DNA of 64,000 nt from Sialis fuliginosa (Eukaryota > Arthropoda > Insecta > Megaloptera > Sialidae): positions 14,146,701 through 14,210,700 of the forward strand of contig OY540816.1 of the NCBI GenBank assembly GCA_961205875.1, given 5' to 3'. The first letter of the stretch is position 1. Every line of letters starts with the position of its first letter. The notes under the pieces were generated by a model. The model did not search any database, was not told where the DNA came from, and saw nothing but the letters and a program-made list of their open reading frames with translations. The position numbers and the translations under genes are program-made. Shown piece by piece: positions 55,107 to 57,206 of this stretch.

Positions 55107-55207
55107 ATTTCTCTTATATGTATATATATATATTTAAATATACCTATTTTGTAGGGGTTTTTTTTAGGTCAAAATATTAATTAAAGAACTAAACCAATGT
55201 TCAAATC

Positions 55208-55262
55208 ATTTTAATTAATAGCGCTTATTTTAATTTTCAACATTTTTGTCTTCATCAGAAAT
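55208..55262 (-). ncRNA. hammerhead-ribozyme-like motif, 3' arm (sense to the element)
   Basis: Minus-strand mirror image of the motif at 56615-56669, lying in the 3' terminal repeat relative to the endonuclease frame. This is where Penelope-like elements are known to carry hammerhead ribozymes. Core CTGATGA and GAAA present; stems I and III pair, stem II is weak. Confidence 0.45.
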
Positions 55263-56012
55263 TAATAATTATCCCTATAAGAAATCATAAACATAAGTAA
55301 GTAACATAAGCAAATGAACAAGATATTCATAGATATAAACATATTTTTTTTACTTACAATTTAAACAGTAATTAGTGTGACCATATGTATGTAGTAAAAG
55401 ATGCATATTACATCAAAAAAATTTTTTTTAAATATTAAAAAGTACCCATTCTTGTACAAAAGACTAAAAATATGTAAATGTGATATCCAACAGATAAAAC
55501 AATATATAAAAACAATTTCTTTAAAACATTAAAACTTAAAAATTTAGTTTAAAAACGTTAAAAATAAATAAAATTCGTATCACATTGTATCACATGTTGA
55601 AAAGTATTTATACTAAGATAAAACTTAATTAAACAAGAACCATCAATTGTTTTTACTTAAAACTAGTTACAAATTTATTATACAAACATGAAAAAAGAAA
55701 TAAAATTACTAGTGTTTCAAAGAAAGAAAAGCACTAGTATTACAAACTTAATTATATTTATTACATCTATGGAAAACAAAAATCTTATCTATGTTAAATG
55801 TCAATTTTAAGTACAAGGTAACCTAGAAAGAATTTTTTAAAAATTTTAAAAAGAGAGAAAAAAAGGGAACAAAAACCAACAAAATCAAACTAAAACATAT
55901 ACCTAATCAAACAAAAATGAAAAAAGTTAAAATTAATAGAAAAACCAAAAAATGGCATACAATACAAGCAAAAAGAAACGTGGAAAGAAGAAGAAAGAGG
56001 AAAAAAGAAAAT

Positions 56013-56492
56013 TTATTTAATTAAATTTAGATATGATTCTTTGAGGTGATTAAGATTTTCTCTAGAGTTAAGACATTTAGGTTCTTTTAAGATATGTAAC
56101 GATTCACTAAGTAATCTTTTTTTTAAAATAGGCTGAAAATCTAAAATTTCAACATCACCATATTCAACTTCGTGACCAGTCTGTTGTATATGGGTACGAA
56201 GTGCAGTAACTTCATTTTTAGCATATTTATGACTGTTGATTCTCTTTTGCAAGTATTGTTTAGATTGCCCTAAGTAAGAATAATCACAAGAACATTTAAG
56301 TTTATAAATAACGTTAGAACATTTCATCTTATCAGTTTTATTTTTTAATTTAGAAAAAAAAATTTTTGTAGTATACTTATTTTTGTTTATCATTTTTATA
56401 TTATGTCCAGAAACAACTCTTTTCATTTTTTCAGATAAAATAGGTATATACGGGAATGAAAAATATATTTGATCATTTTTTACTACATACAT
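56013..56492 (-). pseudogene. Penelope-like GIY-YIG endonuclease domain (C-terminal fragment)
   Basis: A 159-codon frame. Residues about 12-50 (FSFPYIPILSEKMKR then the KLKNKTDK linker) match the segment that joins reverse transcriptase to endonuclease in Penelope-like proteins. The endonuclease follows: NVIYKLKC with Cys residues, YLGQ in place of YIG, an Arg/His stretch in the QKRINSHK region, THIQQTGHEVEY, a DVEILD strand and the conserved Glu in LLSESLHI, then a LNSRENLNHL tail. Family length is about 800 residues, so the N-terminal reverse transcriptase is gone. The first codons (MYVVK) lie within the inverted repeat and are not the original start. It would nick DNA during target-primed insertion if part of a full protein. 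Confidence 0.88.
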
Positions 56493-56614
56493 ATGGTCAC
56501 ACTAATTACTGTTTAAATTGTAAGTAAAAAAAATATGTTTATATCTATGAATATCTTGTTCATTTGCTTATGTTACTTACTTATGTTTATGATTTCTTAT
56601 AGGGATAATTATTA

Positions 56615-56669
56615 ATTTCTGATGAAGACAAAAATGTTGAAAATTAAAATAAGCGCTATTAATTAAAAT
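56615..56669 (+). ncRNA. hammerhead-ribozyme-like motif, mirror arm
   Basis: In order: ATTT (stem I), CTGATGA at 56619-56625, a weak four-pair stem II closed around AAAA, GAAA, stem III AATTA pairing TAATT (56660-56664) with AGCGCT in its loop, the cleavage base A at 56665, and AAAT closing stem I. The terminal UUA fits the NUH cleavage rule. This is a hand fold; stem II is shifted from the ideal, so activity is uncertain. Confidence 0.45.
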
Positions 56670-57206
56670 GATTTGAACATTGGTTTAGTTCTTTAATTAA
56701 TATTTTGACCTAAAAAAAACCCCTACAAAATAGGTATATTTAAATAATATCAAGATGGTCATATATATGAATACTAATATATATATATATATATACCTAT
56801 ATACATTTTTTTTGTTATTATTTATAGAAATAGATAGATACAAGTGATAATTGATAAGAACTATCAAGTGTATAATGCTATAATGAAATTCGACATCTTT
56901 AAAATTGAGTGACAGAAACACGAATTTTGGAGAGACGATAATTTAAAAACAAAGTGTAATAACTTATTTTCATATACTAAAATATGATGACCAAAGTGTA
57001 CTTATTGTTAGCTTAATTCATTTCAAAGCCATTATCAACGATATCGTAATTGAAAGAATATAAATAGCTGAATTAATAAGACTGTACTTTTTCCTGAAGA
57101 ACTGTTTTCAAATACATATTGATTTCTTAAAATGCATTGACAATAAATATAAACTTTAGAACGATTATCAAACAGAGTTGAATTACCAAAATGCATTAAA
57201 ACAAAC

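What the first reader, a model, noticed from the sequence alone, without database searches (positions are those of the whole stretch)
55131..56746. Penelope-like element with mirror-image terminal repeats and paired hammerhead motifs
Only the endonuclease end of the protein remains, framed by two inverted ~269-bp arms. Each arm carries CTGATGA...GAAA with compatible stems I and III. The inverted arm joins within the first codons of the surviving frame, which points to template switching during reverse transcription or insertion. High arm identity implies it is young, and a transcript from either side would carry a ribozyme-like motif at its 3' end.
Basis: partly seen in the sequence, partly recalled or inferred. 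Interest (0 to 1): 0.75.

Follow-up and report, generated by a model that had tools for sequence, protein, structure and literature searches.

The report
Truncated Penelope-like element, inverted ends
This looks like a short, recent remnant of a known kind of jumping gene (a Penelope-like retroelement) whose tail end sits at both sides in mirror image; that layout is already described for this kind, and the proposed self-cutting RNA motif has the right core letters but no support from its predicted fold.

Summary
The anatomy is real: two perfectly inverted 269-bp arms (55131-55399, 56478-56746) frame a 5'-truncated, stop-free minus-strand frame (56501-56016) that reads like the C-terminal GIY-YIG nuclease of a Penelope-like element (PLE), then a 613-bp T-rich stretch. 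5'-truncated PLE copies flanked by inverted pLTRs and PLE hammerhead motifs are published, so this is a new member of a known kind. The hammerhead core is in both arms, but Rfam gives no hammerhead match at E<=10 and 51 of 300 shuffles fold as well. Added here: both outer ends lie 112-121 nt past the core letters CTGATGA; in the Anolis PLE, reverse transcription starts 111-118 nt into an ORF that begins there, on both DNA strands. That favours two-ended target-primed reverse transcription with head-to-head joining of two cDNAs; self-priming remains a serious rival. No second copy, full-length relative or empty site could be examined (genome search did not complete), so family, nuclease and mechanism are inferred.

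The parts
55140..56737 (-). whole element if the palindromic ATTTAAAT is a target-site duplication; sense strand is minus
55131..55399 (-). 3'-terminal arm (pLTR-like end, sense orientation), 269 bp, perfect inverted match of the other arm
56478..56746 (+). inverted copy of the same 269-bp 3' end, fused to the truncated head
56016..56501 (-). 162-codon open frame, stop at 56013-56015; C-terminal GIY-YIG-like nuclease by motif order (VIY...YLG, R, H, E; motif recalled); first 8 codons lie in the inverted arm
   Evidence: PF01541 17.7 bits on 1 of 6 lengths tried, cutoff 22.6
55400..56012 (-). 613-bp T-rich stretch (3' UTR) between the stop codon and the arm
55235..55258 (-). hammerhead core CTGATGA-13-GAAA in the sense 3' end (55-nt motif 55208-55262)
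56619..56642 (+). same core in the inverted arm (55-nt motif 56615-56669)
55142..55169 (-). A/C-rich ACCTA-(18)-TAGGT stem-loop, +87 to +114 from the ATG inside the core; candidate RT-initiation region; the element end lies just after it
   Evidence: a hairpin this good in 374 of 2000 shuffles and 173 of 2000 random window stretches, so only its position speaks
56708..56735 (+). same stem-loop in the inverted arm
   Evidence: by identity of the arms
55132..55139 (.). ATTTAAAT, candidate 8-bp TSD, left (palindromic; longest direct match there is TATATTTAAATA, 55129-55140)
56738..56745 (.). ATTTAAAT, candidate 8-bp TSD, right (12-bp direct match 56735-56746)
56474..56482 (-). head-to-head junction at 56477/56478; the innermost arm bases (sense) are AAAA, possible microhomology, undecidable without a full-length copy

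Best explanation
A 5'-truncated copy of an endonuclease-bearing Penelope-like retroelement with an inverted terminal copy. Most likely course: the element's protein cut both strands of an AT-rich target with a stagger of about 8 nt. Both cut ends primed reverse transcription at the same internal site of the template RNA, at the A/C-rich stem-loop some 110 nt past the hammerhead core. One cDNA stopped after about 260 nt, the other after about 1,340 nt inside the endonuclease coding region (TSD not counted), and the two were joined head to head. The hammerhead motif is the usual PLE passenger at this place; whether it cuts is unknown. Shown: arms, frame, core letters, positions. Inferred: family, initiation site, TSD, two-ended priming, joining. 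I give identity and architecture about 0.8 and the two-ended mechanism about 0.45; the stated confidence is for the whole.
For: Perfect 269-bp inverted arms at both outer ends. Open frame with GIY-YIG motif order and a sub-threshold PF01541 match. Hammerhead core in sense orientation near the 3' end. Counted from the first base after CTGATGA, the element ends at 112 (TSD taken off) or 121 nt (arm end); counted from the ATG in the core, 116 or 125 (arithmetic). In Anolis PAc the ORF begins at hammerhead stem II, RT starts 111-118 nt into it, both strands are cleaved and extended, the RT start does not differ between them, and the cut sites are AT-rich (main text read). Published 5'-truncated Penelope copies with inverted pLTRs, and TSDs of 8-10 bp on other copies in the same paper. 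AT-rich flanks and 8-bp direct ATTTAAAT.
Against: No reverse transcriptase in this copy and no relative found. PF01541 matched 1 of 6 lengths of the protein tried (77 aa; not 162, 105, 72, 62 or 107 aa), below its cutoff, and 2 of 6 shuffled controls gave unrelated families at E 0.018 and 0.006. Structure prediction failed (mean pLDDT 35). The ATG in the core is closed by a stop after 14 codons (sequence), so it is not shown to be an ORF start as in PAc. PAc starts RT inside its stem-loop; here the end lies just after one that is not above chance. The distance was compared with PAc after the element had been seen, with one published element, and no control was run for it. The truncated Pen2 copy with inverted pLTRs had no TSD. 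The palindromic repeat cannot be told apart from the arm ends.
Confidence: 0.6

Rival explanations
1. Self-priming: the cDNA folded back at a short match about 269 nt from the end and copied its own first part, or an antisense template primed itself, as proposed for head-to-head Penelope copies of Adineta vaga.
For: Proposed in PMC3846280 because of palindromes at inverted junctions (Discussion read). Gives the same arm-spacer-arm layout. A short match at the junction is possible (AAAA).
Against: Does not by itself explain a direct repeat at both outer ends; snap-back copying should run on into flanking DNA, yet flank symmetry ends within about 15 bp of AT-rich sequence. The arms are separated by 1,078 bp, so there is no palindrome at this junction.
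Confidence: 0.25
2. Two separate PLE insertions in opposite orientation, or a later rearrangement, brought the ends together.
For: PLEs favour AT-rich sites, including their own pLTR.
Against: The arms are identical, and arm and truncated frame meet without AT-repeat target DNA between them.
Confidence: 0.1
3. Not a PLE: a DNA transposon or foldback element with 269-bp terminal inverted repeats around a nuclease fragment.
For: Perfect TIR-like arms and an 8-bp TSD-like repeat; the GIY-YIG match is weak.
Against: Hammerhead core and end distance fit a PLE 3' end. Besides the nuclease-like frame, the only frame of 60 or more codons wholly inside the element is a 65-codon lysine-rich one on the plus strand, not tested for transposase similarity.
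Confidence: 0.1
4. Assembly artefact that duplicated one arm in inverted orientation.
For: The arms are identical; elsewhere the window holds a 5.8-kb tandem duplication with one difference, itself possibly an assembly duplicate.
Against: The inner and outer neighbours of the two arms differ; the layout is published for PLEs.
Confidence: 0.06

Closest known systems
Penelope elements of Adineta vaga (PMC3846280; passages and Discussion read)
   Same: A 5'-truncated Pen2-subfamily copy flanked by inverted 212-bp pLTRs; Pen5 and Pen6 bounded by inverted pLTRs; AT-rich targets
   Different: Arm here 269 bp with 613 bp between stop codon and arm; here a candidate TSD (the truncated Pen2 copy had none); no RT and no direct pLTR in this copy; no sequence comparison was possible
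Poseidon PAc of Anolis carolinensis (PMC11167929; main text read)
   Same: Hammerhead core near the 3' end of the unit; element end near the RT-initiation distance; AT-rich target
   Different: PAc copies are tandem; its ORF starts after G8 and stays open, here an ATG overlaps A6-G8 and closes after 14 codons; the PAc hammerhead cuts with its protein, here untested
Drosophila virilis Penelope (PMC3136932; passages read)
   Same: Transcripts with long inverted repeats, discussed there as the probable source of siRNAs
Minimal type I hammerhead motifs of PLEs (PMC6155905, PMC7761336; passages read)
   Same: Hammerhead motif in the pLTR
   Different: Those usually lack helix III; here the best stem I goes with a 6-bp A-U helix III and an 11-nt loop, and there is no covariance-model match

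Membership tests
Penelope-like elements (EN+) | telomerase-like reverse transcriptase in the same ORF | tested here: inconclusive
   Absent from this copy, which is truncated before it would appear; no relative found; the genome search did not complete
Penelope-like elements (EN+) | C-terminal GIY-YIG nuclease with Cys and His pairs (motif details recalled) | tested here: inconclusive
   Motif order by eye; PF01541 17.7 bits, E=0.0046 on 1 of 6 lengths tried, cutoff 22.6; model pLDDT 35
Penelope-like elements (EN+) | 5' truncation with pLTR, optionally inverted | tested here: met
   269/269 inverted arms around a truncated frame; layout described in PMC3846280 and inverted pLTRs in PMC8969392 (passages)
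Penelope-like elements (EN+) | element ends at the RT-initiation site, 111-118 nt into the ORF in an AC-rich stem-loop (shown for PAc) | tested here: inconclusive
   End at 112 nt past CTGATGA if the TSD is taken off, 121 if not; just after a stem-loop matched by 374 of 2000 shuffles
Penelope-like elements (EN+) | insertion in AT-rich DNA with short TSD | tested here: inconclusive
   AT-rich flanks and ATTTAAAT on both sides, but palindromic; empty site not available
Hammerhead ribozyme (type I, RF00163) | conserved core letters | tested here: met
   CTGATGA and GAAA, with A15.1-U16.1 and H17 available
Hammerhead ribozyme (type I, RF00163) | covariance-model match | tested here: not met
   No hammerhead at gathering score or at E<=10
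Hammerhead ribozyme (type I, RF00163) | three helices more stable than chance | tested here: not met
   51 of 300 shuffles as stable; 55-nt motif +4.4 kcal/mol against -2.1 for its best fold
Hammerhead ribozyme (type I, RF00163) | self-cleavage, alone, as dimer or with protein | not testable with these tools
   needs in vitro transcription

The most novel reading that the evidence does not exclude
The inverted pLTRs of Penelope-like elements are scars of two-ended target-primed reverse transcription: both ends of one staggered break prime at the same internal RNA site, and two cDNAs of unequal length are joined head to head. This would replace self-priming as the explanation, and predicts fixed outer and scattered inner arm ends across copies.
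Probability: 0.4. Interest if true: 0.6.

Novelty: new member of a known kind. Interest (0 to 1): 0.33.

Why it matters
How Penelope-like elements complete integration is open: the PAc paper leaves the later steps unvalidated. This copy, with both ends near the position where RT starts in that element, makes two-ended priming testable by comparing copies: fixed outer ends and scattered inner ends would support it. The ribozyme claim is not strengthened by this copy.

Tried and rejected
Rfam on the whole window, the element and the right arm: no hammerhead there. Protein relatives by tblastn in phages and plasmids, and by peptide patterns in viral and genome contigs: none (in one search, 39 stretches matched a pattern and none was confirmed). 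A degenerate GIY-YIG DNA pattern in viral contigs: 0 (the window's own protein, with one residue fewer between its Cys, would not have matched it). Recalled PLE hammerhead patterns: 0 in genome contigs, 33 stretches in viral contigs, of which 0 of 33 held a GIY-YIG pattern or a relative (tblastn rows only at E 1.9-6.5), so none was used. PHROGs and NCBIfam: only weak, unrelated matches. PDB sequence search: 0. AlphaFold on the single sequence: pLDDT 35, so no fold search was made. Similarity between the arm and the second core at 61194: none above shuffles (score 85.3, mean of 200 shuffles 96.2). Set aside: TIR transposon, double insertion, assembly artefact (see rivals).

Full report
Observation. 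The inverted arms are exact over 269 bp (55131-55399 and 56478-56746) and differ at the next inner base; the 273 bp of the repeat finder includes that mismatch. They are 1,078 bp apart. On the minus strand a frame is open from 56501 to 56016 with its stop at 56013-56015. Its first 8 codons lie in the inverted arm, so the junction at 56477/56478 is where the original coding sequence was cut off. A stop-free stretch of that length outside the arm has p about 4e-7 by base composition (computed for 155 codons, exact number 154). A 613-bp T-rich stretch follows, then the arm in sense orientation. blastn found no other copy of the element in the window.

Protein. By eye the frame has the order of a Penelope-type GIY-YIG nuclease: VIY, a Cys pair, YLG, then R, H, a His pair and a late E (motif recalled). 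Profile support is thin. PF01541 matched one 77-aa sub-window with 17.7 bits, E=0.0046, cutoff 22.6; it did not match the 162-, 105-, 72-, 62- or 107-aa versions. Of 6 shuffled controls 2 gave unrelated families, at E 0.018 and 0.006, so an E of 0.0046 here is not decisive by itself. A single-sequence AlphaFold model failed (pLDDT 35).

Hammerhead motif. CTGATGA-13 nt-GAAA is in both arms, in sense orientation near the 3' end. The pattern is expected 0.85 times in the window and occurs three times, two of these being the arms; 5 of 100 shuffles have three or more. The best pairing is a stem I of 4 and a stem III of 6 bp, all A-U, with an 11-nt loop; its total was reached by 139 of 2000 shuffles, the combination I>=4 and III>=6 by 23 of 2000. 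Under hammerhead constraints 51 of 300 flank shuffles were as stable. The 55-nt fold is at +4.4 kcal/mol against -2.1 for the best fold. Rfam shows no hammerhead at E<=10. PLE hammerheads are described as minimal variants lacking helix III that may act as dimers (PMC6155905, PMC7761336, passages read), and that of Anolis PAc cuts only with its protein (PMC11167929, main text read), so poor folding does not exclude activity. It should be called a hammerhead core, not a ribozyme.

Ends. In PAc the ORF begins at hammerhead stem II, and reverse transcription starts in an AC-rich stem-loop 111-118 nt into the ORF; both DNA strands are cleaved and extended, and the start does not differ between them. 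Here, counted from the first base after CTGATGA, the element ends at 112 nt if ATTTAAAT is taken as a target-site duplication, or 121 nt at the arm end (116 and 125 from the ATG in the core), just after an A/C-rich ACCTA-(18)-TAGGT stem-loop (arithmetic). Against this: the hairpin is not remarkable (374 of 2000 shuffles), the end lies after it and not in it, the ATG closes after 14 codons, and the comparison was made after the fact with one element. ATTTAAAT flanks both ends in direct orientation, but being a palindrome it cannot be told apart from the arm ends.

Mechanism. A 5'-truncated Penelope copy with inverted pLTRs (no TSD) and TSDs of 8-10 bp on other copies are described for Adineta vaga; head-to-head copies are explained there by self-priming on an antisense template (PMC3846280, passages and Discussion read). 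The PAc results suggest a simpler course: both ends of a staggered break prime at the same RNA site, the cDNAs stop at different lengths (about 260 and 1,340 nt here) and their heads are joined. This accounts for identical outer ends, identical arms, a TSD-like repeat and a junction inside coding sequence. I saw no statement of this link in the parts of papers I read; my searches bearing on it were made, in a library that lacks most subscription papers, so I do not claim that it is unpublished. Self-priming stays a serious rival.

Verdict. New member of a known kind. Arms, frame, core letters and end distances are shown; family, nuclease, initiation site, TSD and two-ended priming are inferred. 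The planned comparison with other genomic copies could not be done, because the genome search did not complete in 21 attempts.

Noticed in passing
window 61191-61232 (+): A second hammerhead core, CTGATGAGGATTTGTTGTGAAGTCGAAACACTTGTC, with a weak Rfam Hammerhead_1 match (14.6 bits, cutoff 34, E=2) where the motif of the finding has none, short stems I and III (30 of 2000 shuffles as good) and a hairpin AGAAAC-CACA-GTTTCT at +87 to +102 from its ATG (33 of 2000 shuffles). Possibly the 3' end of another PLE or a retrozyme-like repeat; but its constrained energy is not better than shuffles (128 of 300) and no PLE coding sequence was found beside it.
   Followed up: partly
window 3032-8834 and 8837-14639: A 5,803-bp tandem duplication with one difference (G/A at 3034/8839), copies 2 bp apart: very recent, or an assembly duplicate.
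   Followed up: partly
window 16187, 22112, 23839, 24870, 35967, 53668, 57881: A dispersed family of about 240-620-bp copies, several with inverted ends like AAGGTACTGGCACCAGT (MITE-like); one copy lies on either side of the PLE.
   Followed up: partly
L016 6884-6926: Viral contig with a hammerhead-like stretch CTGATGAAGGATTTAATATCCGAAACGCTCCGCAAGGAGCGTC; no Rfam match at the gathering score.
   Followed up: partly
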